A stretch of DNA of 64,000 nt from Siderastrea siderea (taxonomy: Eukaryota > Cnidaria > Anthozoa > Scleractinia > Rhizangiidae): positions 69,061,662 to 69,125,661 of the forward strand of contig OZ034969.1 in NCBI GenBank assembly GCA_964030785.1. Reading direction: 5' to 3'. Below, in pieces: positions 30,662 through 60,394 of this stretch. Under the pieces are notes generated by a model that was given only the letters and a program-made list of their open reading frames with translations, was not told the origin of the DNA and did no database searches. Position numbers and translations under genes: made by a program. Positions within the stretch are counted from its first letter, which is position 1, and each line of letters begins with the position of its first letter.

Positions 30662-30717
30662 CGGGGCATTATACTGTACTCTACCAAATTACTTACTTTA
30701 ATTACTTTACTTGCTCG
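30662..30717 (+). repeat. Left outer inverted flank of the palindrome
   Basis: Matches 60339-60394 in inverse orientation (CGGGGCATTATACTG...TTACTTGCTCGG), with about two mismatches by eye. Homology stops abruptly outside it. Confidence 0.85.
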
Positions 30718-33700
30718 GTTTACTTGAGTTCCTTGGCCTGCTTGAGTTGCTTGGCCTCCTTCAGTTGCTTGGCCTGCTTGAGTTGCGTGGCTTACTTGAG
30801 TTGCTTGTCCTGCTTGAGTTGCTTGGCCTGCTTGAGTTGCTTGGCTTACTTGAGTTGCTTGGCCTGCTTGAGTTGCTTAGCTTACTTGAGTTGCTTGGCC
30901 TGCTTGAGTTGCTTGCCTTACTTGAGTTGTTTGCCTTACTTGAGTTGCTCGGCATACTTGAGCTGCTTGGCGTACTTGAGTTGCTTGGCCTGCTTGAGTT
31001 GCTTGGCTTACTTGAGTTGCTTGCCCTACTTGAGTTGCCTGCCTTACTTGAGTTCCTTGCCCTACTTGAGTTGCTTGGCCTGCTTGAGTTGCTTGGCTTA
31101 CTTGCGTTCCTTGCCCTACTTGAGTTGTTTGGCTTACTTAAGTTGCTTGGCCTTCTTGCGTTGCTTGGCGTAATTGAGCTGCTTGGCCTACTTGAGTTGC
31201 TTGGCGTGCTTGAGGTGCTTGGCTTACTTGAGTTACTTGCCTTACTTGAGTTGCTTGCCCTACTTGAGTTGCTTGGCCTGCTTGAGTTGCTTGGTCTACT
31301 TAATTTGCTTGGCTTACTTGAGTTGCTTGCCCTACTTGAGTTGCTTCGCCTGCTTAAGTTGCTTGGCTTAATTGAGTTGCTTGGCTTACTTGAGTTGCTT
31401 TTCCTGCTTGAGTTGCTTGGCCTGCTTGAGCTGCTTGGCCTGCTTGAGTTGTTTGGCTTACTTGAGTTGCTTGCCTTACTTGAGTTGCTTTTCCTATTTG
31501 AGTTGCTTGGCCTGCTTGAGCTGCTTGGCCTGCTTGAGTTGCTTGGCCTCCTTGAGTTGCTTGGCGTGCTTGAGTTGCTTGGCTTACTTGAGTTGCTTTT
31601 CCTACTTGAGTTGCTTCACCTGCTTGAGTTGCTTGGCTTACTTGAGTTGCTTGGCTTACTTGAGTTGCTTTTCCTACTTGAGTTGCTTGGCCTGCTTGAG
31701 TTGCTTGGCCTGCTTGAGTTGCTTGGCTTACTTGCGTTCCTTGCCCTACTTGAGTTGTTTGGCTTACTTAAGTTCCTTGGCCTTCTTGAGTTGCTTGGCT
31801 TAAATGAGCTGCTTGGCTTACTTGAGTTGCTTGGCGTGCTTGAATTGCTTGGCTTACTTGAGTTGCTTTTCCTACTTGAGTTGCTTCACCTGCTTGAGTT
31901 GCTTGGCTTACTTGAGTTGCTTTTCCTACTTGAGTTGCTTGGCCTGCTTGAGTTGCTTGGCCTGCTTGAGTTGCTTGGCCTACTTGCGTTCCTTGCCCTA
32001 CTTGAGTTGTTTGGCTTACTTAAGTTCCTTGGCCTTCTTGAGTTGCTTGGCTTAAATGAGCTGCTTGGCTTACTTGAGTTGCTTGGCGTGCTTGAGGTGC
32101 TTGGCTTACTAGAGTTACTTGCCTTACTTGAGTTGCTTGCCCTACTTGAGTTGCTTGGCCTGCTTGAGTTGCTTGGTCTGCTTAATTTGCTTGGCTTACT
32201 TGAGTTGCTTGGCTTACTTGAGTTGCTTGCCCTACTTGAGTTGCTTCGCCTGCTTAAGTTGCTTGGCTTAATTGAGTTGCTTGGCTTACTTGAGTTGCTT
32301 TTCCTGCTTGAGTTGCTTGGCCTGCTTGAGCTGCTTGGCCTGCTTGAGGTGCTTGGCTTACTTGAGTGTCTTGCCTTACTTGAGTTGCTTTTCCTATTTG
32401 AGTTGCTTGGCCTGCTTGAGCTGCTTGGCCTGCTTGAGTTGTTTGGCTTACTTGAGTGTCTTGCCTTACTTGAGTTGCTTTTCCTATTTGAGTTGCTTGG
32501 CCTGCTTGAGTTGCTTGGCCTGCTTGAGTTGCTTGGCTTACTTGAGTTGCTTGGCGTGCTTGAGTTGCTTGGCTTACTTGAGTTGCTTTTCCTACTTGAG
32601 TTGCTTCACCTGCTTGAGTTGCTTGGCTTACTTGAGTTGCTTGGCTTACTTGAGTTGCTTTTCCTACTTGAGTTGCTTGGCGTGCTTGAGTTGCTTGGCT
32701 TACTTGAGTTGCTTGGCTTAATTGAGCTGCTTGGCTTACTTGAGTTGCTTGGCGTGCTTGAGTTGCTTGGCTTCCTTGAGTTGTTTGCCTTACTTGAGTT
32801 GCTTGGCCTGCTTGAGTTGCTTGGCCTCCTTGAGTTGCTCGGCTTACTTGAGTTGCTTTTCCTACTTGAGTTGCTTGGCCTGCTTGAGTTGCTTGGCTTA
32901 CTTGAGCTGCTTGGCTTACTTGAGTTGCTTGACGTGTTTGAGTTGCTTGGCTTACTTGAGTTGCTTGACTTAATTTAGTTGCTTGCCCTACTTGAGTTGC
33001 TTGGTTTACTTGAGCTGCTTGCCTTACTTGAGTTGCTTGGCGTGCTTGAGTTGCTTGGCTTACTTGAGTTGCTTGCCTTACTTGAGTTGCTACCACTAAT
33101 TGAGTTGCTTGGTCTGCTTGAGTTGCTTGGCTTACTTGAGTTGCTTGGCTTACCTGTGTTGCTTGGCTTACTTGAGTTGCTTGGCTTACCTGAGTTCCTT
33201 GGCTTACTTGAATTGCTTGGCTTACTTGAGTTGCTTGCCCTACTTGAGATTGCTTGGCCTGATTGAGTTGGTTGGCTTACTTGAGCTGCTTGGCTTACTT
33301 GAGTTGCTTGGCCTGCTTGAGTTGCTTGGCTTACTTGAGTTGCTTGGCCTGCTTGAGTTGCTTGGCTTACTTAAGCTGCTTGCCTTACTTGAGTTTCATG
33401 GCTTACTTGAGTTGCTTGCCCTACTTGAGTTGCTTGGCTTACTTGAGATTGCTTGGTTTGCTTGAGTTGGTTGGCTTACTTGAGCTGCTTGGCTTAGTTG
33501 AGTTGCTTGGCCTGCTTGAGTTGCTTGGCTTACTTGAGTTGCTTGGCCTGCTTGAGTTGCTTGGCTTACTTAAGCTGCTTGCCTTACTTGAGTTTCATGG
33601 CTTACTTGAGTTGCTTGCCCTACTTGAGTTGCTTGGCTTACTTGAGCTGCTTGGCTTACTTGAATTGCTTGGCTTACTTGAGTTGCTTACCCTACTTGAG

Positions 33701-34303: not shown

Positions 34304-34818
34304 CTTTAATGTCTTGACTGTTCTGGCAGTAAACATTTTAAATAGGCTCTGACACACATATACAAGATTTATGCCTGGATTTTGATTTAGTGGATATTTG
34401 GCGAATATGTTATTCGGAATCTAGACGTTTTACGTGAAGACAAAGAGTCCTTTTATTCAGAGAAGACTTGACTATTGGCTTATTAGCGACGTTTGCCAGG
34501 ATGAAATTGAAAGACCTGATATTATTTCTTCCATCAACTCCGACCATTTGGCAATTTTTCTTCATTTCAATAGTATAGACAAACCGGAGCATGATCACTG
34601 TTTTTGGAAGTTTAATGCCGGTGTCGTGGATGACGACGATTTTGCAACCGATTGATAAATGAAAGTGTGCCTATGTGGTTAAGCGAATTCAATGAAGTTA
34701 CGCATAAAAGACTGTTGTGGGGTTTAGTTAAGTACAGGATTAGACAATTTGCAATTAAATACAGCAAAGAAAAAGCGCACGAAAAAAGAAAAAAGATTTC
34801 TGTTATCGAGACTTCTCT
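34304..34818 (+). pseudogene. LINE-C 5' part: endonuclease C-terminus and linker fragment (left arm)
   Basis: Encodes the end of an AP-type endonuclease (RRLDYWLISD...SINSDHLAIF) and the start of the endonuclease-RT linker (SVPMWLSEFNEVTHKRLLW..KYRIRQFAIKYSKEKAHEKRKK), with frame breaks. It stops at GAGACTTCTCT (34808-34818) and resumes after LINE-A at 37938, where the linker continues. The mirror copy is at about 44208-44700. Confidence 0.82.
34808..34818 (+). repeat. Target-site duplication of LINE-A, left copy
   Basis: GAGACTTCTCT, repeated at 37938-37948 immediately after the A-rich 3' end of LINE-A. Confidence 0.85.
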
Positions 34819-37750
34819 TCTCACATGGGACTTCTAATGCGAGGGGTGTCGCTGTGTTAATCAAGAATAATTGGATATTGTTATTCAGCAAGAATTATCA
34901 GATTCCAAAGGCAGGTTGTTATCCCTAAACGTCAAAATCAAGGACAAAAATTACCGTCTTATAAACGTTTATGGTCCAAATAAGGGCGCAGAGGCAATTT
35001 GTTTTTATCAAAATTTGTCGTCAACTTTACGACTGATGGAGCTAGACGGGGACGATAATGTTATTATAGGTGGAGATTTCAATTGTCCCTTAGACCCTAC
35101 CATGGACAAAAAGGGCGGGATTTTAATCCCACGACAGCATGTGATTAATTCAATTGAAAATATTCAAAATGAGTTTAGTCTCCACGACATTTGGCGCATT
35201 AAGAACCCCAATACTCGTAGCTTTACGTGGAGCAAAATGTCTCCATTTATTTTTTGCAGACTCGATTACTGGCTGATCTCAGATAATTTGCATGATTTAG
35301 TTTCAATAGTTGACATTCTAGCTTCAATTAAAACTGATCACTCTTCGATAGTATTAGAGCTCGAGGATATTCAAGAGGGCTACAGAGGACCAGGATTTTG
35401 GAAGTTAAATACTTCTCTGCTGACCAGACTAGACTATGTGGACATGATAACAAGGAATTGCAATTTGGTTAGAGGAAGCGAACGACTTGTCAAGGCCTTT
35501 AATAGGTAAATTGATGACTGACTCGTTTAATGAAGCCTTTGATAAAAAAGAAATTAAATGTCTTCTTCACAAAAGCAAGCTATCATCACACTCATTGAAA
35601 AGAAAGGAAAGGACAGAAACTATTTAGAAAATTGGAGACCTAAATCGTTAATAAGTGTGGATGCCAAGATTGCTTCCAGGGTAATTGCGGCGAGAATTAT
35701 TAAGGTCCTTCCTGAAATTATTCACGCCAATCAGTCGGAATATGTGAAAGGAAGATTCATAGGTGAAGCTGCGAGATCAATTTTAGATGTTATGGATTTC
35801 AAAAAAAAAGAAAACATAGCTGGTATATAACTCTTTATTGATTTTGAAAAGGCCTTCGACAGTGTTGACTGGAATTTATGTTAAAAGGACTAGATGTGTT
35901 CGGCTTCGAACCAAATCTTATCGGATGGGTAGAGACATTCTATAGAAACATATCCAGTTGTGTGTTGAACAACGGGACCTGTACACTGTATTTTGAATTA
36001 CAAAGAGGAGTTAGACAAGGGATCCGTTGTCGCCGTATTTATTTATTATCGCAGCTGAGATTCTATCAATTGCCATTCAGAGCAAACCTAATATTCAAGG
36101 CCTCAAAATAGGACAGGATGAATTTAAGTTAGTGCAGTATGCCGATGACCTCACTATGTTTGTGCCCGATCTTGAGTGTGCCCAACAGGTTTTTTGTTTA
36201 CTTGATCAATTTGAATCCTGCTCTGGCTTGAAGGTCAACTATTCCAAAACTGAAACCATGTGGATTGGTTCGTCTAGACAAAACACAGAGAACACATCTC
36301 TTGGCTTAAGATGGTGCAACAGCGTTAAGGCCCTCGGGATTGTCTTTACGTATAATGAGGTGGATTTGCTGCAGAAAACGTTTTATGATAAATTGAAAGA
36401 TATCCGAATGCAGACAAGGTTATGGAGTTGCCGGGGCCTCTCACTGTATGGCAAAGTCACGATTATCAAATCACTTCTGATTCCAAAAATGTTGTATGTG
36501 TTTTCAATTCTGCCAACCCCTGAGGATTTCATCAAACAACTCAATTCCATCATTTATAATTTTCTATGGAAAGGGCCAGATAAAATAGCTCGACTAGCTA
36601 CAATAAACGATTTGAAACACGGTGGTCTTGATTTAATAGATATCGTAACCTCAATTAAAGCATCAAAACTGGCCTGGATTGGCAGACTTTTCTCGGAAGG
36701 CTTATCTTAAGCACTTACTTGAAGATTTTGGGGGTAAATTTTTATTCAGATGCAATTATGACGTCAAAGATGACAAAACCTATTCTAAATTTTACAATGA
36801 GCTTCTTCAGTGGTGGGCTGATTTTAGGGCCTCTTTTTCAACAAAGCCTCCCCAGTCCGAAAGTATAATCTGGAATAATAAAAACATTAAAATAGATGGT
36901 AAACCATTATATTATCCGAACTATGTAAAAGCTGGAATTTTATTTTGCCATCATTTACAATTCGATAAAGGTAATCTACAATCTTATAACAATGCAATAG
37001 GTGTTGGTCTGAGAAAGACGATTTTTTTAGTCTGGACAGGGGTACGAAGTGCGATTCCTGCCCACCTAAAGGCTTTGTATTCGATAGAAAAAGAATCAGG
37101 ATTGTTAGAATTTTTCTGCGGAGAAAAATCTTTAACCCATTAACAAGTAAAAGTAAGCAGTTTTATCACTTGCTAGTGTCCGAAAAAGCAAAACCTTCGA
37201 GGGGCTTCAAAAAACTGAAAGGGGACTTTGACCTTGATGATTCAAGTGTTGCAAGTGCCTTTCTTAATACAAAGTCGCTTTCATCTGAAACTTTTATTAG
37301 AAGTTTTCAATTTAAAATTTTAGGCGACATTACCTTTACAAACTATCGTTTAGCTAAGATATGTTATGTTCCGAATGATCTTTGTACTTTTTGTGAGGCT
37401 GGTTCAGAAACGGTCCATCACCTATTTTATGAATGTTCTTTTTCAAACCTCAACATTTTGAAAATTTCTGGTATACACTCTCTGGTCAACGTGAGGATTT
37501 CACTTTAAAAGATGTTTTGGTAGGCATATTAGACGAGGAGTGTGATTTACTAAATTATCTTTTTATTGTTGAAAAACTTCATATTTGGACATGCCGTAAA
37601 CGTAGTGTGACCCCAAATTTCAGAATCTTTATAGGAATGGTTGATGTGAAATACAAAACAGACATGTACATAGCTGCAAAGAACAATAGGAGAGGAAAAT
37701 TTCAGGCTAAATGGCAACTGTATATTAATGCTAGAGAGCTTGTTGGGTAA
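34819..37750 (+). pseudogene. LINE-A ORF2 remnant: endonuclease, RT and zinc-finger C-terminus
   Basis: The endonuclease runs to 35509 with NVYGPN, IIGGDFNCPLD, RLDYWLISD and a KTDHSSI motif. RT begins near 35558 (ITLIEKKGKDRNYLENWRPKSLIS). It is interrupted by a TAA at 35828 just before FIDFEKAFDSVDW, frameshifts near 35877 and 36025, then shows YADDLTMF at about 36138. The C-terminal CTFCEAGSETVHHLFYEC is at about 37384-37437. Several breaks make it non-coding today. A one-base loss near 34870 is private to this arm. Confidence 0.87.
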
Positions 37751-37809
37751 ATGCACCTATCACAAATAATATAAGTTGCATATGAAGGTGTTATTGGAAA
37801 CGAATCAGA

Positions 37810-37812
<3 letters not shown>

Positions 37813-37846
<34 letters not shown>

Positions 37847-37852
37847 TATTAC

Positions 37853-37881
<29 letters not shown>
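37813..37881 (+). repeat. (TTA)n microsatellite in the LINE-A 3' tail
   Basis: About 70 bp of TTA repeats with ACTATT interruptions, upstream of the LINE-A 3' end. Confidence 0.9.
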
Positions 37882-37883
<2 letters not shown>

Positions 37884-37937
37884 ATCATTGATTGTACTAT
37901 ACTGTAAATAGATCTGGAAATAAAATGTGGAAAAAAA

Positions 37938-39412
37938 GAGACTTCTCTAAGGACCTGTGAGGACAAATGCAATAGATCACCAGATCTTGAAAATCAGGAG
38001 GAGCTTGAAATGTTGAATATGGAATATGATTCTATTTACTAACAGTTAGCAAAAGGTTCATTAATCCGATCAAAAGCCGCTTGGTATGAGAAGGGAGAAA
38101 AAAATCAATCAGTACTTTTTAAATCTTGAGGCGCATAAGAAGGCTAAAAGCTCTGTTCGAAAAGTTTTTAACAATGAAGGATCACAAATGTAAGAAAATC
38201 CTGCAGGAGAATCAAAACTTTTATTCTATTCTCTGTAAACGCGATCCTCTCAGTCCATCCGAGGATATGTTAAAACTCGTTTTTAAATACTTCTGAAATA
38301 CCGAAACTCTGGTATGATGACGCTCGAATTTGTGATGGAAAATTAACGGTTGACGAGTGTTACAAGAATCTTCAGTTATTTGAAAGTAATAAGTCACCAG
38401 GTAACGAAGGATTAACGGTAGAATTTTACAGCGGAGCTTTTTGGCACATTTTAGGAAATCTAACGGTAGACAGGTTAAACTTATCTCATGACTATGGTGA
38501 GTTATCAACCTCTCAGAAGGAAGCCATCATTACCTTAATTGATTTCGCTTATCAATGTTGACGTAAAAATAATTAAGCTCGAAAGCTATTGCTAAGAGAT
38601 TAGAAAAAGACTTACTAAATATTATACATTACAATCAATGTGCATATGTCAAGGGTAGAACCATTTTTGACGCAGTTAGAACGATCGAGGATGTCATGGA
38701 ATTTTCAGAAAGGTACAATATTGAAAGAAGAATGATTTGTATTGATTTCAAAAAAGCCTTCGACACTGTAAGTAGGGATATTTTATTTCGTACTTTATCT
38801 GCTTTTGGTTTTGGACCTTCTACTTCGACCTTTGTAGATAATGAAGAGACCAAATTAAGTCTTTACGCAGATGATCTGACTGGTTTTTTGAAAAACGACC
38901 TCTCTCTAGCAAACTTTCTCAGGCTTATAGAAGATTATGGAACTTGTTCTGGCCTTAAGATTAATCACGAAAAAGCAGAAATAATGCTGTTAGGTAATCG
39001 CGCCTATATTTTACAAGAAGACAATGCCGCTTTAGACAACATGAAAATTAAAAAAATCCGTAAAAATCTTGAGAGTACACTTTGCCTATGACTTTCGCGC
39101 GAAACAAAAGCTGAACGTTGATGAGTTCAATTAGTTCTATTAAACTAAAACTACGAATCTGGAGATGGAGGGATCTAACTATTATAGGGAGAATCCAAAT
39201 TGTCAAAACCTTTATCGTCCCAATTTTCTTTTATCGAGTGAGCTTGATATCATTAGATAAGGAATTTGTGAAAGAGTTGAACGGAATTGTCTTTGACTTT
39301 ATCTGGAAGGGGAAGGATAAAGTTAAACGATTTGCTCTTGTTAGTGATATTGAAGATGGAGGACTTAAAGCCCCACACTTAGATTCTATAATTGAAACAA
39401 AGAGGCTGTACA
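37938..39412 (+). pseudogene. LINE-C 3' part: linker and RT fragment
   Basis: Continues the linker broken at 34818 (ETSLRTCEDKCNRSP..), then a region reading RSKAAWYEKGEKN. RT follows with CIDFKKAFDTVSRDI (about 38738), an internal deletion, LYADDLTGF (about 38868) and the thumb-like IVPIFFYRVS..IWKGKDKVKR. Frames shift repeatedly. It ends abruptly at about 39412, where the axis filler starts, so it is not mirrored in the right arm. Confidence 0.82.
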
Positions 39413-39513
39413 GGGTGTAAAGGGTATACAGGGTGTCAGTAGTATGCGAGGTTTACATAACCGCATACAGAGTGTACAAAGGTACTAAGGGTGAAGGAGA
39501 GTATACAGGGTGT
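39413..39513 (+). repeat. Filler DNA at the palindrome axis
   Basis: About 100 bp of degenerate repeated pieces (TACAGGGTGTA, AAGGGTATACAGGGTGTCAG, ATACAGAGTGTACAAAGG, AGTATACAGGGTGTACTCC) with an embedded short inverted repeat (ATGCGAGGTTTAC / ATAACCGCAT). It lies between the end of LINE-C and the start of the inverted LINE-A copy, as expected for a templated end-joining or fork-switch junction. Confidence 0.7.
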
Positions 39514-39667
39514 ACTCCTGATTCTTTTTCTATTGAATACAAAGCCTTTAGGTGGGCAGGAATCGCACTTCGTACCCCTGTCCAGACTAAAAAATTCGTC
39601 TTTCTCAGACCAACACCTATTGCATTGTTATAAGATTGTAGATTACCTTTATCGAATTGTAAATGAT
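39514..39667 (-). pseudogene. LINE-A' (right arm), 3'-most part beyond the LINE-B insertion
   Basis: Reverse complement of 36960-37117 in the left arm, including the RT-C-terminal region ARWSGRNRTSYPCPD in inverse reading. It is separated from the rest of LINE-A' by LINE-B and ends at the axis, so the 3' part of LINE-A' is missing. Confidence 0.85.
39652..39667. repeat. Target-site duplication of LINE-B, left copy (16 bp)
   Basis: TCGAATTGTAAATGAT, repeated at 42051-42066. The undisturbed site exists once in the left arm, in inverse, at about 36957-36975. Confidence 0.9.
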
Positions 39668-39814
39668 TTTTTTAAATTATTTTTCTTCATTATATTTTGT
39701 CCAGGAAATTTTACACTGAGTATTTTACAGTATTTACAATATATTCTTACTTAAAGCTAAATAAGAAACCAAAAGGAGGCCTAGGATGCATGGTAGTTCC
39801 CATTTTGCCAATGT

Positions 39815-41428
39815 TCAGCAGTTATTCTCAATACGGCATTTATTTTTGAGTTGAGTAGTAAACTCTTGGAGGGAGGTGACTTTGTTGTTTAACTTACTTG
39901 AATATAGATAGTGGCGCATAAAGAGGGTGGTATAGTTAAATTTCTTCGTTATTTTTCTATCGTATGAATCAGAAATTACACCAAATAACATTTCTTCTGT
40001 TGTTGGGGTGATCTGACACGCGTTTGTTGCGTTAAACCATTGCAAAACGTCTTTTGCAAATGCCTTCGTAAAAGAGCATTCAATAAATGTGCAGTCAATG
40101 GAGTCGTTCTGTCCGCAGTATGTGCATTCATCATCCTCCCTGATACCAAATTTGAATAATTCTCTCTTCGTTACTATAATTCTATGTATGAACTTGAAGT
40201 GAAACTCTTTGAGTTTATTTTCCTTACAAACGTTTCTCAGCGACTTAAAGATCCTACACCAGGAATCTTCGTTTAGAGAGAGACTTTTACTCCACCGTTT
40301 GGCACCAGTTTGATTGTCTGTATGGGTTTTGTCATTAAGTAATTTGTAAAAATCTTTTGATTTAGCTTTTCCCAGATTAATTTGTCCAGTGTCATTCAAG
40401 TTGAAGATTTTATTATCGCTTGTGAAATATAGCTTGTTAAAGGTGGCAGTATCGTTTGCCTTTGTCAATAAACGGTTCGGTATTGCGCTAATTATTTAAT
40501 AATACTGAAGAAAGTTAGTTTGGCATCCGTATTTATCAGAGAACTCCTTGAAAGTTAAGAAGTTTCCATCATTTTTAAGAAGATCTTTAATAGAGACAAC
40601 TCCTTTCTTGAACCATTCATTAATATAGACTGGCTTCCCGTCAACTAGTATGTCTTTGTTGTTGAATAGAACTATATCTTGTGATTGGTCATAGCCATTG
40701 AGAGTCTTCAATTCATTGAAAGAGTCGAGTATATTTTTATAAAAAACGGGTAGTTGGTTGAAATACTTCGCACTATAGTTGCACCTCAGTATAAAATCTA
40801 GACCTCCCATTTTTCTGAAGAAATGGTTTGGAACTGTGCACCAACTCCTCTTGCCTGTGGCCAGTAATCGAGCGATCCAAACAAGATTGAGCGATTTGAA
40901 CATTAGTCCTATATCAGTCATGCGTAATCCACCTTTACTGGTATCTTGATAGAGTCCTGATCTTTTTATTTTGTCTTTCTTGTTTTTCCAAAGAAATTTA
41001 AAACATTTTGTTTTAACAGTGTCTTTGATTCCTGCAGGAACGACAAGATTTGATGCTGAATAAATAAGCTGAGATAAGCCCAGGGTTTTGATTATCATTA
41101 CTTTTCCAAACAGAGTCAGATCCCGTGTACTCCACATATCGAGTTTTGTTTGTAATACTTTTAGTTTTTGATAAAAATTAAGCTCGTTGTTTCTTTTCTC
41201 GTCATACGAGAAGTGAACTCCAAGTATCTTAACGGGACTGCGCATCCACTTCATTCCAAGTGGGTTGCTCGTATTATTTGCCCATTTCCCTAACCAAATC
41301 GCCTTCGTTTTCTTCACATTTAAACACAGACCGGCTATCTTGCCAAACTCTTCTACCAATTTCAAGGCCCTTTCCACAGGAGCTAAGTCAGCACAAAAAA
41401 TGTTGGTGTCGTCCGCAAACAGAGTCAA
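39815..41428 (-). pseudogene. LINE-B ORF2 C-terminal part (RT fingers/palm end to zinc finger)
   Basis: Two minus-strand frames: 41428-40496, beginning TLFADDTNIF (the FADD motif) and continuing through the thumb (SRSWCTVPNHFF), and 40468-39815, ending in a C-terminal region with CTYCGQNDSIDCTFIEC. A short gap with a stop at about 40497-40470 and a frame change at about 41430 break the reading. Homologous in order to the LINE-A C-terminus but clearly a different subfamily. Confidence 0.85.
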
Positions 41429-41435
41429 TTTGACT

Positions 41436-48230: not shown

Positions 48231-48249
48231 CTTCGAGATCGCGTTTTAA

Positions 48250-49659: not shown

Positions 49660-49675
49660 CCCTCCCCCCCTCCCA

Positions 49676-49757: not shown

Positions 49758-52700
49758 AGGAAAAGCAATTCAAGTAAGCCAGGCAACTCAGGTAAGCGAA
49801 GCAACTCAGGAAAGCCAAGCAACACAAGTAAGCCAAGCAACTCAAGTAAGCCAAGCAACTCAAGTAAGCGAAGCAACTCAAGCAGACCAAGCAACTCAAG
49901 TAGGGCAAGCAACTCATGTGAGGCAAGCACCTCAAGTAACCCAAGCAACTTAAGTAAGCCAAGCAACTCAAGTAGTCCAAGCAACTCAAGTAAGCCAAGC
50001 AGCTCAAGTAAGCCAAGCAACTCAAGTAACCTAAGCAGCTCAAGTAAGCCAAGCAGCTCAAGTAAGCCAAGCAACTCAAGTAAGGCAAGCAACTCAAGTA
50101 AGCCAAGCAACTCAATTAAGCCAAGCAACTCAAGCAGCTCAAGTAAGCCAACCAACTAGAGCAGGCCAAGCAGCTCAAGCAGGAAAAGCAATTCAAGTAA
50201 GCCAAGCAACTCAAGTAAGCCAAGCAATTCAAGTATGCCAAGCAACTCAGGTAAGCCAAGCAACTCAAGTAAGCCAAGCAACACAAGTAAGCCAAGCAAC
50301 TCAGGTAAGCCAAGGAACTCAAGTAAGCCAAACAACACAAGTGAGGCAAGCACCTCAAGTGAGGCAAGCATCTCAAGTAGGAAAAGCAGCTCAAGTAGGA
50401 AAAGCAACTCAAGTAAGCCAAGCAACTCAAGGAGGCCAAGCAACTATAGCAGGCCAAGCAACTCAAGTAGGGCAAGCACTCAAGTAAGGCAAGCAACTCA
50501 AGTACGCCTAGCAACTCAAGCACCCCAAGCAACTCAAGTAAGCCAAACAGCTCAATTAAGCCAAGCAACTCAAGTAAGCCAAGCAACTCAAGCAGGCTAA
50601 GCAACTCCAGTAGGAAAAGCAACTCATGCAAGCAACGCAACTCAAGTAAGCCAAGCAACTCAAGCAGGCCAAGCCACTCAAGTAGGGCAAGCAACACAAG
50701 TAAGGCAAGCAACTCAAGCACGCCAAGCAACTCAAGTAAGCCAAGCAGCTCAATTAAGCCAAGAAACTCAAGTAAGCCAAGCAACTTAAGTAAGCCAAGC
50801 AACTCAAGCAGGGCAAGCAACTCAAGTTAGGCAAGCAACTCAAGTACGCCAAGCGACTCAAGCACGCCAAGCAACTCAAGCTGGCCAAGCAACTCAAGTA
50901 AGTCAAGCAGCTCAAGTAGGCCAAGCAACTCAAGTAAGCCAAGCAGCTCAAGTAAGCCAAGCAACTCAAGTAAGCTAAGCAGCTCTAGTAAGCCAAGCAA
51001 CTCAAGTATGCCAAGCAACTCAGGTAAGCCAAGCAACTCAAGTAAGCCAAGCAACACAAGTAAGCCAAGCAACTCAGGTAAGCCAAGGAACTCAAGTAAG
51101 CCAAACAACTCAAGTGCGGCAAGCACCTCAAGTGAGGCAAGCATCTCAAGTAGGAAAAGCAGCTCAAGTAGGAAAAGCAACTCAAGTAAGCCAAGCAACT
51201 CAAGGAGGCCAAGCAACTATAGCAGGCCAAGCAACTCAAGCAGGCCAAGCCACTCAAGTAGGGCAAGCAACACAAGTAAGCCAAGCAACTCAAGCACGCC
51301 AACCAACTCAAGTAAGCCAAGCAGCTCAATTAAGCCAAGCAACTCAATTAAGCCAAGCAACTTAAGTAAGCCAAGCAACTCAAGCAGGGCAAGCAACTCA
51401 AGTTAGGCAGGCAACTCAAGTAAGCCAAGCGACTCAAACACGCCAAGCAACTCAAGCCGGCCAAGCAACTCAAGTAAGCCAAGCAACTCAAGTAGGCCAA
51501 GCAACTCAAGTAAGCCAAGCAGCTCAAGTAAGCCAAGCAACTCAAGTAAGCTAAGCAGCTCAAGTAAGCAAAGCAACTAAAGCAGGCCATGAAATTCAAG
51601 TAGGAAAAGCAACTCAAGTAAGCCAAGCAACTCAAGGAAGCCAAGCAACTCCAGCAGGCCAAGCAACTGAAGCAGGCCAAGCAACTCAAGTAGGGTAAGC
51701 AACTCAAGTAAGGCAAGCAACTCAAGTACGCCTAGCAACTCAAGCACGCCAAGCAACTCAAGTAAGCCAAGCAGCTCCATTAAGCCAAGCAACTCAAGTA
51801 AGCCAAGCAACTCAAGCACGCCAAGAAACTCAAGTAAGCCAAGCAGCTCAATTAAGCCAGGCAACTCAAGGAGGCCAAGCAACTTAAGGAAGCCAAGAAA
51901 CTCAAGCGGGCCAAGCAACTCAAGTAGGGCAAGCAACTCAATAAGGCAAGCAACTCAAGTAAGGCAGGGAAGCAAGTAAGCCCAGCAACTCAAGTAAGCC
52001 AGGAAACTCAAGGAGGCCAAGCAACTCAAGTAAGGGAACCAACTCAAGGAGGCCAAGCAACTGAAGTAGGGCAAGCAAACTCAAGTAAGGCAAACAACTC
52101 AAGGACGCCTAGCAACTCAAGTAAGCCAAGCAACTCAAGTAAGCCAAGCAACTCAAGCAGGATAAGCAACCCCAGTAGGAAAAGCAACTCAAGTAATCCA
52201 AGCAACTCAAGCATGCCAAGCAACTCTAGTAGGGCAAGCAACTCAAGTAAGGCAAGCAACTTAATTAAGCCAAGTAACTCAAGGAGGCGAAGCATCTTAA
52301 GTAAGCTAAGCAACTCAAGCAGGCCAAGCAACTCTAGTAGGGCAAGCAACTCAAGTAAGGCAAGCAACTCAATTAAGCCAAGCAACACAAGGAGGACAAG
52401 CATCTTAAGTAAGCCAAGCAACTCAAGCAGGCCAAGCAACTCAAGTAGGGCAAGCAACTCAAGTAAGGGAAGCAACTCAAGTAAGCCAAGCAACTCAACC
52501 AGGCCAAGCAACTCAAGCAGGCCAAGCAACTCAAGTACGTCAAGCAGCTCAAGTAAGCAAAGCAACTCAAGGAGGCCGAGCAACTAAAGTAGGGCAAGCA
52601 ACTCAAGTAAGACAAGGAACTCTAGTAAGCGAAGAAGGTCAATTAAGCCAAGCAATTCAAGGAGGCCAAGGAACTCAAATAAGCCAAGCAACTCAAGCAG

Positions 52701-53313
52701 GCCAAGCAACTCAAGTAGGGCAAACAACTCAAGTAAGGCAAACAACTCAAGTAAGGGAAGCAACTCAAGGACACCAAGCAACTCAAGCAGGCTAAGCAAC
52801 TCAAGTATGCTAAGCAAATCAAGTAGGGCAAGCAACTCAAGTGAGGCAAGCACCTCAAGTAAGCCAAGCAACTCAAGTAAGCCAAGCAGCTCAAGCGGCC
52901 AAGCAACTCAAGCATGCAAAGGAACTCAAGTAGGAAAAGCAACTCAAGTAAGCCAAGGAACTCAAGTAAGCCAAGCAACTCAAGCAGGCCAAGCAACTCA
53001 AGTAGGAAAAGCAACTCAAGTAAGCCAAGCAATTGAAGGATTCCAAGCAACTCAAGTAAGCCTAGCAACTCAAGCACGCCAAGCAACTCAAGTAAGCCAA
53101 GCAGCTCCATTAAGCCAAGCAACTCAAGTAAGCCAAGCAACTCAAGCACGCCAAGCAACTCAAGTAAGCCAAGCAGCTCAATTAAGCCAGGCAACTCAAG
53201 GAGGCCAAGCAACTTAAGGAAGCCAAGCAACTCAAGCGGGCCAAGCAACTCAAGTAGGGCAAGCAACTCAAGTAAGGCAGGTAAGCAAGTAAGCCCAGCA
53301 ACTCAAGTAAGCC
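49758..53313 (-). repeat. 18-bp minisatellite, right arm, main block
   Basis: About 197 units in opposite orientation to the left arm. Higher-order repetition is visible: blocks at about 50,160-50,800 and 50,930-51,570 match with a ~774-bp period, marked by AAGTATGCCAAGCAACTCAG and AACTATAGCAGGCC. Confidence 0.95.
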
Positions 53314-53323
53314 AAGAAACTCA
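53314..53323. repeat. Flanking duplication of helicase TIR element 1, left
   Basis: AAGAAACTCA, repeated at 54655-54664. It is a variant of the satellite's AAGCAACTCA, so coincidence with the host repeat must be considered. Confidence 0.6.
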
Positions 53324-54654
53324 TAGTCTCCTTCGCAGCTGCTCGGGTCGGAGTCACGCAACGCTCCCTGTTCCACGCGGCTGCTTCAAACCGACATACA
53401 TTCCTTTCTCGGAATAAACCAATCACAGTGCGGCTTTCATTTTCTTGCGGAGGTTCGCGCCAGAAATGTCAACCAATCACCTGGCTCCTTTTATTCGCTA
53501 AGCGACCGAGTTCTTTAAGTAGCAAATGGCGAATCGTGAAGACTGGCGTTCAATCTTGTAGCAAAAAAAATTCAGTACACCGGCTTTAAATTCGCATCAG
53601 AAGTTAGCGATCTCGAAGTTAATTGAAGGGAGAAAGGTATTTTCATTACACCGTGCTCCGTCACGCGTGAACAGTAATCCACAAGACTGGAGTGAACATT
53701 TGAATATTTCTTTGAATGAAATGTTGAAGATCCCTCTGGAAAACACTTTAAAACTCACGAGTTAACGGGAAAATAACTTCGCTACACGCATACTAGTAAG
53801 AAACCTAATATTGTTCGGATATGTAACATTTCAAATGAAATGATATTTTGTAGCTCGTTGTTTCCGTAAATGTGGTAAAATTATCACGGGAATTCGGAAT
53901 GTCGGGAAGAATTACAAAACCGACGCGTTAACTTGAAAACTCCGTTCAAATTTTCAAAAATCCTGTCCACGCGTGACAGAGCATGGCTGTAATTTGCCGA
54001 CTGGCCTAGGAAAATCTCTGGTATTTCAAGCTTTGCCTTTAGTCATCCACCATATAGAAAAACAACAAAACCACATCTGTGTTGTTGTGTCTCCATTGCA
54101 ATTGCTTAGTCTAGTGGACGATCAAGTGGCGTATTTGAGAAGAAAAGAAGTAACGGCGGCGAGCATTAGCTCTTGTACTGAAAAGAAGGCGACATTGATT
54201 GAAAAGGGAAAGGTTTCTGTGGTCTTTGACTCCCCAGAAGTATGGATCAAAATCGAACGTCAGAGAGCGATGCTTGGAAATTCTGTTTATTCAAATAAAT
54301 TGTATGCTTTGGCCATCGACGAAGCCCACGTAACAAGATAATAATTAGACTAGCACACAAGTCGACCTGAAAGGTTTTTCTCGGAAGCACAAGGAACTTT
54401 GGAGAAAGTCTAGATAACAATAAGAAATACAATCGGCAAGATCGAAACTAACATGTGAAGGGTTTTTTCCGCGAAAGAAAACATCAAGACGCCAAGCTAT
54501 GCTGTGATCGGTGCAGCGTATACAATAGCAAGATGCTGATTGGTCCAAGTAAAAATATCGCAGACAATGGGAAAGGAATGTATGTCGGTTTGAAGCAGCC
54601 GCGTGGAACGGGGAGCGTTGCGTGACTCCGGCCCGAGCGGCTGCGAAGAAGACT
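53324..54654. mobile_element. 1.33-kb TIR element with RecQ-like helicase fragment, copy 1
   Basis: Terminal inverted repeats of ~83-85 bp: AGTCTCCTTCGCAGC... at 53325 matches the inverse of ...GCTGCGAAGAAGACT ending at 54654, extending to ACCGACATACATTCC. The interior is unique sequence with a helicase fragment and no transposase. It is probably an internally deleted derivative of a larger helicase-bearing transposon. Academ-type elements are known to carry SF2 helicases, but that assignment is only a guess. Confidence 0.85.
53973..54341 (+). pseudogene. RecQ-like SF2 helicase N-domain fragment, copy 1
   Basis: The frame gives Walker A NLPTGLGKSLVFQ (motif I), a motif Ia-like VVVSPLQLLSLV, SPEVWIK and the motif II box AIDEAHV, then stops. 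The order and spacing fit the first RecA-like domain of a RecQ-type helicase. No start codon in good context, no motifs III-VI and no RQC/HRDC region are present, so it cannot act as a helicase. Confidence 0.8.
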
Positions 54655-54664
54655 AAGAAACTCA

Positions 54665-56217
54665 AGGAGGCCAAGCAACTCAAGTAAGGGAAGCAACTCA
54701 AGGAGGCCAAGCAACTGAAGTAGGGCAAGAAACTCAAGTAAGGAAAACAAGTCAAGGACGCCTAGCAACTCAAGTAAGCCAAGCAACTCAAGCAGGATAA
54801 GCAACCCCAGTAGGAAAAGCAACTCATGTAATCCAAGCAACTCAAGCAGGCCAAGCAACTCTAGTAGGGCAAGCAACTCAAGTAAGGCAAGCAACTCAAT
54901 TAAGCCAAGCAACTCAAGGAGGCCAAGCATCTTAAGTAAGCCAAGCAACTCAAGCAGGCCAAGAAACTGTAGTAGGGCAAGCAACTCAAGTAAGGCAAGC
55001 AACTCAATTAAGCCAAGCAACTCAAGGAGGCCAAGCATCTTAAGTAAGCCAAGCAACTCAAGCAGGCCAAGCAACTCAAGTAGGGCAAGCAACTCAAGTA
55101 AGGGAAGCAACTCAAGTAAGCCAAGCAACTCAACCAGGCCAAGCAACTCAAGCAGGCCAAGCAACTCAAGTACGTCAAGCAGCTCAAGTAAGCCAAGCAA
55201 CTCAAGGAGGCCGAGCAACTCAAGTAGGCCAAGCAACTCAAGTAAGCCAAGCAGCTCAAGTAAGCCAAGCAACTCAAGTAAGCTAAGCAGCTCAAGTAAG
55301 CCAAGCAACTCAAGTATGCCAAGCAACTCAGGTAAGCCAAGCAACTCAAGTAAGCCAAGCAACACAAGTAAGCCAAGCAACTCAAGTAAGCCAAGCAACT
55401 CAACCAGGCCAAGCAACTCAAGCAGGCCAAGCAACTCAAGTACGTCAAGCAGCTCAAGTAAGCCAAGCAACTCATGGAGGCCGAGCAACTAAAGTAGGGC
55501 AAGCAACTCAAGTAAGACAAGGAACTCTAGTAAGCGAAGAAGGTCAATTAAGGCAGGGAATTCAAGGAGGCCAAGGAACTCAAATAAGCCAAGCAACTCC
55601 AGCAGGCCAAGCAACTCAAGTAGGGCAAACAACTCAAGTAAGGCAAACAACTCAAGTAAGGGAAGCAACTCAAGGACACCAAGCAACTCAAGGAGGCTAA
55701 GCAACTCAAGTATGCTAAGCAAATCAAGTAGGGCAAGCAACTCAAGTGAGGCAAGCACCTCAAGTAAGCCAAGCAACTCAAGTAAGCCAAGCAGCTCAAG
55801 CGGCCAAGCAACTCAAGCATGCAAAGGAACTCAAGTAGGAAAAGCAACTCAAGTAAGCCAAGGAACTCAAGTAAGCCAAGCAACTCAAGCAGGCCAAGCA
55901 ACTCAAGTAGGAAAAGCAACTCAAGTAAGCCAAGCAATTGAAGGATTCCAAGCAACTCAAGTAAGCCTAGCAACTCAAGCACGCCAAGCAACTCAAGTAA
56001 GCCAAGCAGCTCCATTAAGCCAAGCAACTCAAGTAAGCCAAGCAACTCAAGCACGCCAAGCAACTCAAGTAAGCCAAGCAGCTCAATTAAGCCAGGCAAC
56101 TCAAGGAGGCCAAGCAACTTAAGGAAGCCAAGCAACTCAAGCGGGCCAAGCAACTCAAGTAGGGCAAGCAACTCAATAAGGCAGGTAAGCAAGTAAGCCC
56201 AGCAACTCAAGTAAGCC
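54665..56217 (-). repeat. 18-bp minisatellite between the helicase elements
   Basis: About 86 units. Its variant order repeats that found upstream of the first helicase element (52,000-53,313), showing that satellite plus insertion were duplicated together. Confidence 0.95.
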
Positions 56218-56227
56218 AAGAAACTCA

Positions 56228-57542
56228 TAGTCTCCTTCGCAGCTGCTCGGGCCGGAGTCACGCAACGCTCCCCGTTCCACGCGGCTGCTTCAAACCGACA
56301 TACATTCCTTTCTCGGAATAAACCAATCACAGTGCGGCTTTCATTTTCTTGCGGAGGTTCGCGCCAGAAATGTCAACCAATCACCTGGCTCCTTTTATTC
56401 GCTAAGCGACCGAGTTCTTTAAGTAGCAAATGGCGAATCGTGAAGACTGGCGTTCAATCTTGTAGCAAAAAAAATTCAGTACACCGGCTTTAAATTCGCA
56501 TCAGAAGTTAGCGATCTCGAAGTTAATTGAAGGGAGAAAGGTATTTTCATTACACCGTGCTCCGTCACGCGTGAACAGTAATCCACAAGACTGGAGTGAA
56601 CATTTGAATATTTCTTTGAATGAAACATTGAAGATCTCTCTGGAAAACACTTTAAAACTCACGAGTTAACGGGAAAATAACTTCGCTACACGCATACTAG
56701 TAAGAAACCTAATATTGTTCGGATATGTAACCTTTCAAATGAAATGATATTTTGTAGCTCGTTGTTTCCGTAAATGTGGTAAAATTATGTCGGGAAGAAT
56801 TACAAAACCGACGCGTTAACTTGAAAACTCCGTTCAAATTTTCAAAAATCCTGTCCACGCGTGACAGAGCATGGCTGTAATTTGCCGACTGGCCTAGGAA
56901 AATCTCTGGTATTTCAAGCTTTGCCTTTAGTCATCCACCATATAGAAAAACAACAAAACCACATCTGTGTTGTTGTGTCTCCATTGCAATTGCTTAGTCT
57001 AGTGGACGATCAAGTGGCGTATTTGAGAAGAAAAGAAGTAACGGCGGCGAGCATTAGCTCTTGTACTGAAAAGAAGGCGACATTGATTGAAAAGGGAAAG
57101 GTTTCTGTGGTCTTTGACTCCCCAGAAGTATGGATCAAAATCGAACGTCAGAGAGCGATGCTTGGAAATTCTGTTTATTCAAATAAATTGTATGCTTTGG
57201 CCGTCGACGAAGCCCACGTAACAAGATAATAATTAGACTAGCACACAAGTCGACCTGAAAGGTTTTTCTCGGAAGCACAAAGAACTTTGGAGAAAGTCTA
57301 GATAACAATAAGAAATACAATCGGCAAGATCGAAACTAACATGTGAAGGGTTTTTTCCGCGAAAGAAAACATCAAGACGCCAAGCTATGCTGTGATCGGT
57401 GCAGCGTATACAATAGCAAGATGCTGATTGGTCCAAGTAAAAATATCGCAGACAATGGGAAAGGAATGTATGTCGGTTTGAAGCAGCCTCGTGGGACGGG
57501 GAGCGTTGCGTGACTCCGGCCCGAGCGGCTGCGAAGGAGACT
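56228..57542. mobile_element. TIR element with RecQ-like helicase fragment, copy 2
   Basis: Near-identical to 53324-54654 apart from a ~17-base deletion at about 56,786 and scattered substitutions. Both TIRs read AGTCTCCTTCGCAGC. It is flanked by the same AAGAAACTCA (56218-56227 and 57543-57552), as expected if the segment was tandemly duplicated and not inserted independently. Confidence 0.87.
56861..57229 (+). pseudogene. RecQ-like SF2 helicase N-domain fragment, copy 2
   Basis: The same 122-codon frame as copy 1, differing at one visible residue in the DEAH box context (AVDEAHV). The open frame is kept in both copies, but the duplication is young, so this does not prove selection. Confidence 0.78.
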
Positions 57543-57552
57543 AAGAAACTCA

Positions 57553-60338
57553 AGGAGGCCAAGCAACTCAAGTAAGGGAAGCAACTCAAGGAGGCCAAGC
57601 AACTGAAGTAGGGCAAGCAACTCAAGTAAGGCAAACAAGTCAAGGACGCCTAGCAGCTCAAGTAAGCCAAGCAACTCAAGTAAGCCAAGCAACTCAAGCA
57701 GGATAAGCAACCCCAGTAGGAAAAGCAACTCAAGTAATCCAAGCAACTCTAGCAGGCCAAGCAACTCTAGTAGGGCAAGCAACTCAAGTAAGGCAAGCAA
57801 CCCCAATTAGCCAAGCAACTCAAGGAGGCGAAGCATCTTAAGTAAGCCAAGCAACTCAAGCAGGCCAAGCAACTCTAGTAGGGCAAGTAACTCAAGTAAG
57901 GCAAGCAACTCAATTAAGCCAAGCAACTCAAGGAGGCCAAGCATCTTAAGTAAGCCAAGCAACTCAAGCAGGCCAAGCAACTCAAGTAGGGCAAGCAACT
58001 CAAGTAAGGGAAGCAACTCAAGTAAGCCAAGCAACTCAAGTAAGCCAAGCAACTCAACCAGGCCAAGCAACTCAAGGAGGCCGAGCAACTCAAGTAGGGC
58101 AAGCAACTCAAGTAAGGCAAGGAACTCAAGTAAGCGAAGAAGGTCAATTAAGCCAAGCAATTCAAGGAGGCCAAGGAACTCAAATAAGCCAAGCAACTCA
58201 AGTAGGGCAAACAACTCAAGTAAGGTAAACAACTCAAGTAAGGGAAGCAACTCAAGGACACCAAGCAACTCAAGCAGGCTAAGCAACTCAAGTATGCTAA
58301 GCAAATCAAGTAGGGCAAGCAACTCAAGTGAGGCAAGCACCTCAAGTAAGCCAAGCAACTCAAGTAAGCCAAGCAACTCAAGCGGCCAAGCAACTCAAGC
58401 ATGCAAAGGAACTCAAGTAGGAAAAGCTACTCAAGTAAGCCAAGGAACTCAAGTAAGCCAAGCAACTCAAGCAGGCCAAGCAACTCAAGTAGGAAAAGCA
58501 ACTCAAGTAAGCCAAGCAATTGAAGGATTCCAAGCAACTCCAGCAGGCTAAGCAACTCAAGCAGGCGAAGCAACTCAAGCATGTAAAGCAACTCAAGTAG
58601 GAAAAGGAACTCAAGTGAGCGAAGCAACTCAAGCAGGCCAAGCAACTAAAGTAGGGCAAGCAACTCAAGTAAGGCAAGCAACTCGAGTACGCCTAGCAAC
58701 TCAAGTACGCCAAGCAACTCAAGCAGGCCAAGCACCTCAAGTAGGGCAAGTAACTCAAGTAAGGCAACCAACTCAAGTAAGCCAAGTAACTCAAGCACGC
58801 CAAGCAACTGAAGTAAGCCAAGCAGCTTAATTAAGCCAAGCAACTCAAGGAGGCCAAGCAACTTAAGTAAGCCAAGCAACTCAAGCAGGCCAAGCAACTC
58901 AAGTAGGGCAAACAACTCAAGTAAGGCAAGGAACTCAAGTAAGCCAAGCAACTCAAGCACGCCAAGCAACTCAAGCAGGCCAAGCAACTCACGTAAGCCA
59001 AGTAAGCAAGTAAGCCAAGCAACTCAAGTAAGCCAAGCAACTCAAGGAGGCCAAGCAACTCAAGTAAGGGAAGCAACTCAAGCAGGCCAAGCAACTCAAG
59101 TAGGGCAAGCAACTCAAGTAAGGCAAACAACTCAAGTACGCCTAGCAACTCGAGCACGCCAAGCAACTCAAGTAAGCCAAGCAGCTCAATTAAGCCAAGC
59201 AACTCAAGTAAGCCAAGCAACTCAAGCAGGCTAAGCAACTCTAGTAGGAAAAGCAACTCAAGTAAGCCAAGTAAGCAAGTAAGCCAAGCGGCTCAATTAA
59301 GCCAAGCAACTCAAGGAGGCCAAGCAACTTAAGTAGGCGAAGCAACTCAAGAAGGCCAAGCAAGTCAAGTAGGGCAAGCAACTCAAGTAAGGGAAGCAAG
59401 TCAAGTAAGCCAAGCAACTCAAGCACGCCAAGCAACTCAAGGAAGCCAAACAGCTCAAGTAAGCCAAGCAACTCAAGCAGGCCAAGCAACTCAAGTAGGG
59501 CAAGCAACTCAAGGAAGGCAAGCAACTCAAGTAGGGCAAGCAACTCAAGCAACTCAAGCAGGTCAAGGAACTCAAGTTAGCCAAGCAACTCAAGTAAGCG
59601 AGGCAGCTCAATTAAGCCAAGCAATTCAAAGAGGCCAAGCACCTCAAGTAAGCCAAGCAACTCAAGCAGGCCAAGCAACTCGAGTAAGCCAAGCACCTCA
59701 AGCAGGCCAAGCATTTCAAGTAAGCGAAGCAACTCACGCAGGGGAAGCAACTCAAGTAGGGCAAGCAACTCAAGTTAGCCAAGCAACTGAAGCACGCCAA
59801 GCAACTCAAGTAAGCCAAGCAGCTCAAGTGAGCGAAGCACCTCAAGCAGGCCAAGCAACTCAAGTAGGGCAAGCAGCTCAAGTAAGGCAAGCAACTCAAG
59901 TAAGCCAAGCAACTGAAGCACGCCAATCAAATCAAGTTAAGCCAAGCAGCTCAAGTAAGCCAAGCAACTCAAGGAGGCCAAGCAACTCAAGTGAGCTAAG
60001 CAACTCAAGGAGGCCAAGCAAGTCAAGTAGGGCAAGCAACTCAAGTAAGGCAAGCGACTCGAGTAAGCCAAGCAGCTCAAGCAGGCCAAGCAACTTAAGT
60101 AAGCTAAGCAGCTCAAGTAAGCCAAGCAACTCAAGCAGGCCAAGCAACTCAAGTAAGCCAAGCAACTCAAGTAGGGCAAGCAACTCAAGTAAGGCAAGCA
60201 ACTCAAGTAAGCCAAGCAACGCAAGCACGCCAAGGAACTCAAGTAAGCCAAGCAACTCAAGTAAGCCAAGCAACTCAAGTAAGGCAAGCAACTCAAGTAA
60301 GCCAAGCAATTCAAGTAAGCCAAGCACCTCAAGTAAGC
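57553..60338 (-). repeat. 18-bp minisatellite, right arm, outer block
   Basis: About 155 units. The first part (about 57,553-58,550) repeats the variant order of the two preceding blocks but lacks a helicase insertion. The outer part is more diverse. It ends at AGCAAGTAAAG, where the inverted outer flank begins. Confidence 0.95.
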
Positions 60339-60394
60339 CAAGCAAGTAAAGTAATTAAAGTAAGTAATTTGGCAGAGTACAGTATAATGCCCCG
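60339..60394 (-). repeat. Right outer inverted flank of the palindrome
   Basis: Inverse of 30662-30717. Homology ends at CCCCG (60394), beyond which the sequence is unrelated to the left flank. Confidence 0.85.

What the first reader, a model, noticed from the sequence alone, without database searches (positions are those of the whole stretch)
30662..60394. A ~29.7-kb interrupted palindrome built from satellite, nested LINEs and later insertions
The sequence shows matching inverted outer flanks, the same 18-bp satellite in opposite orientation in the two arms, and inverted copies of a compound LINE insertion sharing the same nested junction and internal deletion. Private insertions and substitutions in each arm indicate a real, older inverted duplication. 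Such structures are rarely resolved and may be a source of instability or small RNAs.
Basis: seen in the sequence. Interest (0 to 1): 0.9.

Follow-up and report, generated by a model that had tools for sequence, protein, structure and literature searches.

The report
Foldback transposon with satellite-filled inverted ends
The giant palindrome is one copy of a jumping-DNA family whose two mirror-image ends are long arrays of an 18-base repeat carrying nested retrotransposons, and its two arms appear to have been copying each other since it landed.

Summary
The interrupted palindrome is real (LINE arms 96.9% identical by substitution over 2,625 aligned bases), but it was probably not made here by a local inverted duplication. 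The window's own genome (831 Mb) holds the same palindrome at C14 (16.4 kb), down to its odd inner junction. At C1 (18.7 kb) is a relative with inverted satellites and LINE D in one arm only, still with the empty site of LINE A. All three begin with GGTAGRTACTTCATATATGATACATTATAGTGTAC. In the window this end lies at 30628; its partner lies outside the window at 71490, because another element was inserted at 60395. With both ends in hand there is a perfect 8-bp target duplication, GAGAGCCT. So this is a foldback-type DNA transposon copy, 40.9 kb long with its later passengers. C4 and C14 inherited two LINE-bearing arms, yet 19 of 20 two-against-two sites group the arms by locus and 1 by inherited arm position: the arms homogenise each other. 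The satellite arrays show no in-register identity. Superfamily and transposase are unresolved; the only candidate is a relict OTU-transposase-like ORF inside C1. The host taxon was not identified.

The parts
30620..30627 (+). Target-site duplication GAGAGCCT, left copy (right copy just outside the window, after window position 71490)
   Evidence: Sequence: 8/8 identical
30628..30662 (+). Left terminus of the element, GGTAGGTACTTCATATATGATACATTATAGTGTAC
   Evidence: Pattern in 21 places of own genome with up to 3 mismatches, reversed control 0; its partner is C4:69133117-69133151 (-)
30663..30701 (+). Leader between terminus and satellite, left arm
   Evidence: Inverse match at 60394-60357; also at both ends of C14 and at C8
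30701..34307 (+). 18-bp satellite array (TTACTTGAGTTGCTTGGC), left terminal repeat
   Evidence: TRF
34308..34818 (+). LINE D 5' piece (endonuclease C-terminal part), left arm
   Evidence: same satellite/LINE D joint in C1 with 26 extra bp
34819..37938 (+). LINE A, 5'-truncated, inserted in LINE D with target duplication GAGACTTCTCT; internal deletion near 35494
   Evidence: intact empty site at C1
37939..39405 (+). LINE D 3' piece (reverse transcriptase), single-copy centre
   Evidence: Pfam RVT_1 in 38573-39088; continuity over LINE A by blastx
39405..39515 (+). Piece of a second minisatellite (TACAGGGTGTA type) at the inner joint
   Evidence: 126 matches in own genome; joint to LINE A shared with C14
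39516..39667 (-). LINE A, right arm, inner bit (= 37101-36950)
   Evidence: 98.7%
39668..42050 (-). LINE B, later insertion in right-arm LINE A, target duplication ATCATTTACAATTCGA
   Evidence: a close relative P0001, 99% over 90% of the query ORF
42051..44700 (-). LINE A + LINE D 5' piece, right arm
44702..45295 (-). 18-bp satellite, right arm, inner part
45296..49756 (+). Ngaro/DIRS-like element inserted in the satellite (split direct repeats 45296-45410/49545-49659 and 49460-49540/49676-49756); family name recalled
   Evidence: Repeats; RVT_1, RNase H and integrase matches all below Pfam cut-offs, PHROG integrase E=1e-4
49757..53326 (-). 18-bp satellite, right arm
53327..54652 (+). DNA element with 82-bp inverted ends and a DEAD-helicase-like ORF, inserted in satellite
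54653..56230 (-). 18-bp satellite, right arm (within 2.9-kb tandem duplication)
56231..57540 (+). Second copy of the helicase-like element made by the tandem duplication
   Evidence: 98.0%
57541..60356 (-). 18-bp satellite, right arm, outer part
60357..60394 (-). Leader, right arm
60395..64000 (.). Left part of a further insertion (E2) inside the right terminal repeat; its inverted other end lies next to the true right terminus at C4:69133117-69133151
   Evidence: Near-identical inverted ends of about 80 bp; window 64001 to about 71240 was not read

Best explanation
The palindrome is a copy of a foldback-type (long, internally repetitive inverted ends) cut-and-paste DNA transposon. Shown: shared termini, an 8-bp target duplication at this locus, a second copy of the palindrome at C14, and at C1 a relative with inverted satellites in the state before LINE A arrived. 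Inferred: a transposase supplied in trans recognises the termini and perhaps the repeats in the ends; LINE D and then LINE A inserted in one end; the loaded end was copied onto the other end, giving two LINE-bearing arms; the whole palindrome then jumped, giving C4 and C14; since then the LINE parts of the two arms have been homogenised by arm-to-arm gene conversion (or re-synthesis of one arm from the other), while the satellites turned over and new elements piled into the right arm.
For: Terminus pattern: 21 places, control 0; both ends of C4 (30628; 71490), C1 and C14 carry it, C14's right end with one extra base and one substitution. Target duplication GAGAGCCT 8/8 at C4 (chance 1.5e-5); with one copy of it the C4 flanks read GCGCCAAGG-ATCGAGAG-CCTTGGCGC, a perfect inverted repeat, as expected of an undamaged target (flanks printed). 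C14 holds sat - LINE D - LINE A - filler - LINE D(inverted) - LINE A(inverted) - sat(inverted), with the LINE A/filler inner joint of the window's right arm. C1 has LINE D in its left arm, none found in the part of its right arm that was read, and one intact copy of the LINE A target. Concerted evolution: 19 sites (C4L,C4R)|(C14L,C14R), 1 site by inherited arm position, 0 the third way; within-locus LINE A distance 2.44% (52/2133) and 1.88% (24/1278) against 3.60-3.96% between loci. One 391-bp identical run inside the C4 arms, P=0.0002 by permutation.
Against: One of three target duplications is clean: C14's is not (GCTCTGGG / CTCTCGGG) and C1's is 6 of 8 (chance 0.004). The right terminus of C4 has 4 mismatches to the reference string and was reached by inferring that 60395 to about 71430 is one insertion; only 500 bp at its far end were read. 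The C4 flanks share an inverted TCTGCGCCAAGG just outside both termini, and about 50 bp outside the left terminus are alike in C4 and C14; I read both as a common palindromic target repeat, since the other ends read (C14 right, both of C1, C2 two, C8, C10) lack it, but longer inverted ends or duplicated flank are not excluded. C4-C14 LINE A distances (3.6-4.0%) are close to distances to six other genomic LINE A copies (3.4-5.4%). C1's pairing of ends leaves 3.1 kb (40981801-40984900) unread. No transposase is tied to the termini. The satellite arms show no in-register identity (in-register 0.874 against 0.869 +/- 0.016).
Confidence: 0.82

Rival explanations
1. Local inverted segmental duplication: a broken end folded back, copied 30662-37101 in reverse and left a single-copy spacer of 2.4 kb, as in human fold-back inverted duplications.
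For: Single-copy spacer of 2,414 bp between the arms, in the published range 766-70,466 bp, with 5 of 21 published joints holding inserted sequence (PMC3907307 passages). It may still be how one end of an ancestral element came to carry the other end's LINEs.
Against: The same palindrome and the same inner joint exist at C14, inverted satellites at C1, and the copy here is bounded by termini and an 8-bp duplication.
Confidence: 0.07
2. C4 and C14 are copies of a palindrome spread by segmental duplication rather than by transposition; the termini are just where homology happens to end.
For: About 50 bp of outer left flank alike in C4 and C14; C14 target duplication imperfect.
Against: Termini recur at 21 places; three of the four extra ends read (C2 two, C10) show no satellite in the 200-odd bp read inside them, so the termini are not tied to this palindrome; C4 has an 8/8 target duplication.
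Confidence: 0.06
3. The locus is a hairpin-RNA source: transcription through it gives long double-stranded RNA that is cut to siRNAs against its LINEs; this would be a use of the palindrome, not a rival origin.
For: 31 of 87 perfectly complementary stretches are 21 nt or longer, 2,036 bases in all, longest 391. Inverted-repeat loci give esiRNAs in Drosophila (PMC5392987, abstract).
Against: No transcription or small-RNA data; no Rfam match in the window.
Confidence: 0.1
4. Assembly artefact (inverse join of haplotypes or a fold-back read).
Against: Private insertions with target duplications, 3% divergence, a second copy on another contig.
Confidence: 0.02

Closest known systems
Tetris of Drosophila virilis (foldback transposon that seeded a satellite; PMC4079207, passages seen)
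   Same: Long terminal inverted repeats with internal tandem repeats, 8-10 bp target duplications, non-autonomous copies, repeats also found as longer satellite-like arrays
   Different: Tetris repeats are about 220 bp; here 18 bp in arrays of about 1.0-8.6 kb per arm, with nested LINEs inside both arms
Galileo (P superfamily; PMC3573991 and PMC3688188, passages seen)
   Same: Long internally repetitive inverted ends resembling Foldback; tandem repeats hold secondary transposase binding sites
   Different: Galileo TIRs are about 0.3-1.26 kb, target duplication 7 bp; no P-type transposase was looked for here
Tm1 Mutator/Foldback family of root-knot nematodes (PMC3169594, passages seen)
   Same: Composite inverted ends with a short (about 14 bp) repeated motif; 8-10 bp target duplications; structural variety
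   Different: The element sizes in the passages seen are about 1 kb; ends of one element average 93.15% identity, and the paper's main text does not use the term gene conversion (0 occurrences)
Palindromes kept alike by gene conversion on mammalian sex chromosomes (PMC8981503, PMC3723533, abstracts in listing) and in Caenorhabditis (PMC1803023, passages seen)
   Same: Arms within a locus more alike than the related arms elsewhere
   Different: On the sex chromosomes arm identity exceeds 99%; here 96.9%, and the palindrome is mobile

Membership tests
Foldback-type DNA transposon | Long terminal inverted repeats made largely of short tandem repeats | tested here: met
Foldback-type DNA transposon | Defined termini shared by copies at different places | tested here: met
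   21 places, control 0; paired ends at C1, C4, C14
Foldback-type DNA transposon | Target-site duplication around complete copies | tested here: met
   1 of 3 clean: C4 8/8; C1 6/8; C14 not clean
Foldback-type DNA transposon | Single-copy middle between the inverted ends | tested here: met
   37102-39515 at C4; longer middles at C14 and C1
Mutator superfamily | Mutator-type DDE transposase linked to these ends | tested here: inconclusive
   C1 interior ORF (271 aa) has 51 matches in the genome; a 573-aa relative has OTU (25.2 bits, cut-off 23.3) and sub-threshold ISL3/IS256 transposase matches; no link to the termini shown
P superfamily (Galileo) | THAP/P-type transposase | not tested
   No search was made for one
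Conversion-maintained palindrome | Arms of one locus more alike than inherited counterparts in other loci | tested here: met
   19:1:0 site patterns
Conversion-maintained palindrome | Arm identity above 99% | tested here: not met
   96.9%
Fold-back inverted duplication (repair product) | Structure unique to its locus | tested here: not met
   C14 shares structure and inner joint
Hairpin-RNA locus | Small RNAs from the arms | not testable with these tools
   No RNA data

The most novel reading that the evidence does not exclude
A family of large foldback transposons whose inverted ends grow as satellites and act as duplicators of cargo: whatever inserts in one end (here two nested LINEs) is copied onto the other end, moves with the element, and is afterwards kept alike by arm-to-arm conversion at each landing site; the same ends seed the 18-bp and TACAGGGTGTA minisatellite arrays at other loci, and an OTU-bearing DDE transposase family is the driver.
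Probability: 0.3. Interest if true: 0.75.

Novelty: new variant of a known kind. Interest (0 to 1): 0.58.

Why it matters
It ties three things usually seen apart: a transposon with measurable ends, satellite arrays, and a palindrome whose arms coevolve. Because C1 shows the state before the LINE A insertion and C14 and C4 the state after it, the order of events can be read, and arm-to-arm conversion can be measured against satellite turnover in one molecule. Paper searches combining foldback with cnidarian terms gave no cnidarian case: 10 of 4,974 listed, none of the 10 with the foldback term; 1 paper, on a midge; 0. The library lacks most subscription papers and the host taxon is unproven.

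Tried and rejected
Satellite as a coding repeat: the 758-aa open frame is expected for an 18-bp unit (300 column shuffles, P=0.24); rejected. Satellite ORF protein search: the 7,985 candidates sharing most words were scored, none E<=0.001. Satellite and leader in viral contigs: 0. Rfam 0 at gathering score, ARAGORN 0. In-register comparison of the satellite arms: no signal (that script stopped with an error after printing these results, before its insertion-joint prints, which one search repeated). In one search the R3 satellite block fell half a unit out of phase, so its row was not used. Independent insertion of two LINE A copies: codon positions of arm differences 14/23/15 show no third-position excess, but since the LINE is a deletion form this is weak; the shared nested joints decide. 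I first read the structure as a local fold-back inverted duplication and dropped that reading when the own-genome search answered.

Not resolved: superfamily; whether the OTU-type ORF in C1 belongs to the element or to another insert; the interior of E2 (60395 to about 71430), of which only the part up to 64000 and, at the far side, a 500-bp stretch holding the right end were read; number of complete copies (the leader-pattern search did not complete). Genome counts are lower bounds by the tool's own note.

Full report
WHAT IS THERE. Self-comparison of the window shows one strong inverted pair of arms outside the satellites: 34308-36965 against 44700-42051 (94.8%, 2,683 columns, E=0), with 81 substitutions in 2,625 aligned bases and 9 indels. 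A second piece, 36950-37101 against 39667-39516 (98.7%), shows that the right arm runs on inwards; the gap between the pieces is LINE B (39668-42050) with the 16-bp target duplication ATCATTTACAATTCGA. The single-copy centre is therefore 37102-39515. Both arms continue outwards into the same 18-bp satellite in opposite orientation, then a leader matching over about 40 bp.

NESTING. LINE A sits in LINE D with the target duplication GAGACTTCTCT. Protein comparison of the rejoined LINE D flanks gave 268 HSPs, of which 13 cross the joint, 3 of them by one or two bases only; the clearest is P0125. In the right arm a Ngaro/DIRS-like element (45296-49756) and a helicase-bearing inverted-repeat element (53327-54652) interrupt the satellite, and a 2.9-kb tandem duplication doubled the latter (51973-55474 / 54879-58380, 94%). 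Taking these away, and the excess of right-arm satellite over left-arm satellite, leaves about 6.45 kb, the size of the left arm (6.44 kb; arithmetic).

THE TURN. LINE A has at least 43 matches (40 of 104 candidates scored). The LINE D/LINE A stretch matched best, after the two arms, at C1:40968781 and C14:3182981. The leader-plus-satellite query had 568 matches, part of them listed: leader with satellite at both ends of C14:3181841-3198220 in opposite orientation and at C8; terminus and satellite at C1 and, diverged, at C9; satellite alone at C2, C5, C6 and C11; satellite on both strands at C1. Fetched stretches show the following.

C14: terminus, satellite (+), LINE D remnant, LINE A up to the equivalent of 37101, filler (-), LINE D 3' part (-) split by gag-pol ORFs of an LTR-type retrotransposon, LINE A (-) with its 3' end, a different LINE, LINE A (-), satellite (-), leader, terminus. 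The joint LINE A-37101/filler is letter-for-letter that of the window's right arm at GAATCAGG|AGTACACCCTGTATACTC. Read backwards, C14 is the window's palindrome.

C1: terminus (no full leader), satellite (+), LINE D without LINE A (one intact copy of GAGACTTCTCT), a middle with an ORF of the OTU-transposase-like family, filler (+), satellite (-), and a terminus 4.2 kb further on, of which 3.1 kb were not read. No LINE D was found in the part of its right arm that was read.

ENDS. The 35-base end pattern has 21 places with up to 3 mismatches; the reversed control has none. One is C4:69133117-69133151 on the minus strand, window position 71456-71490. Just inside it the sequence is the inverted near-copy of the sequence that follows 60394 in the window, so a further element (E2) sits between. 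The element at C4 thus spans 69092289-69133151 (40,863 bp), and its flanks are ...GATC GAGAGCCT | element | GAGAGCCT TGGC...: an 8-bp duplication. With one copy of it the flanks read GCGCCAAGG-ATCGAGAG-CCTTGGCGC, so the target was a short palindrome; this also explains why the two flanks share an inverted TCTGCGCCAAGG, which must otherwise be counted against the placing of the ends. At C1 the flanks agree in 6 of 8 bases; at C14 they are GCTCTGGG and CTCTCGGG, which fit only with a one-base shift.

CONCERTED EVOLUTION. Since C4 and C14 both have two LINE-bearing arms and share the inner joint, their ancestor had both arms. Inherited counterparts are C4 right with C14 left and C4 left with C14 right. 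Of the columns of LINE A present in all four arms, 1,199 are invariant; among two-against-two sites 19 group arms by locus, 1 by inherited position and 0 the third way. Within-locus distances are 2.44% and 1.88%; between loci 3.60-3.96%. Inside C4 the divergence is patchy: 29 of 481 in the LINE D part against 52 of 2,144 in LINE A (Fisher P=0.0002), with one 391-bp identical run (P=0.0002). I infer arm-to-arm gene conversion or re-synthesis of one arm from the other. The satellites do not take part visibly: in-register identity over the 594 bp next to the LINE is no better than out of register (45 of 167 shifted registers are as good).

WHAT IT WORKS LIKE. Foldback-type elements are marked by long inverted ends with internal repeats; Tetris (8-10 bp target duplications, repeats that seeded a satellite; PMC4079207, passages), Galileo (PMC3573991, PMC3688188, passages) and Tm1 (PMC3169594, passages) are the nearest. 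In Galileo the tandem repeats contain further transposase binding sites; the same use of the 18-bp units here is a guess. Superfamily is open: from recall, 8 bp suits several. A 573-aa relative of the C1 interior ORF has an OTU domain and sub-threshold transposase matches, but nothing ties it to these ends.

LIMITS. C14 was read across, C1 all but 3.1 kb, C4 all but E2's middle; other satellite loci were seen as 3-kb pieces. No reads, RNA or population data were available.

Noticed in passing
42050/39668 in the window; C14:3192588-3194536 (L063/L060): Two different LINEs sit at the same nucleotide of LINE A with the same target duplication (A)TCATTTACAATTCGA, one in the window's right arm, one at C14: an insertion hot spot or independent hits.
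   Followed up: partly
35494 (LINE A) and 41436-41963 (LINE B): Both LINEs are internally deleted forms with close relatives elsewhere: P0132 shares the LINE A joint at protein level, P0001 is 99% to the LINE B fusion ORF. Two of six other genomic LINE A copies read (L004, L007) have about 600 bp at the LINE A joint.
   Followed up: partly
17903-24119: BEL/Pao-type LTR element with 300-bp LTRs (96.7%), Peptidase_A17 and DUF5641.
   Followed up: no
45296-49756: Ngaro/DIRS-like element with A1-B1-A2-B2 split direct repeats and long ORFs; family name recalled, tyrosine-recombinase match below cut-off.
   Followed up: partly
53325-54654 and 56229-57542: Element with 82-bp inverted ends carrying a DEAD/RecQ-like helicase fragment, flanked by AGAAACTCA repeats.
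   Followed up: no
39405-39515; C8:48397689-48401397: A second minisatellite (TACAGGGTGTA type) adjoins the 18-bp satellite at C1, C2 (50.54 Mb), C5 and C9 in fetched DNA, lies within about 1.5 kb of it at C2 (50.46 Mb) and C11, and forms a free array of about 3.7 kb at C8.
   Followed up: partly
62188-62663 and 62902-64000: A 476-bp self-palindrome (87%) and a 479-bp tandem repeat, both inside the inferred later insertion E2.
   Followed up: no
C10:45240153-45240187 (L074): Two termini of the element almost back to back (about 70 bp), like a minimal foldback copy.
   Followed up: no
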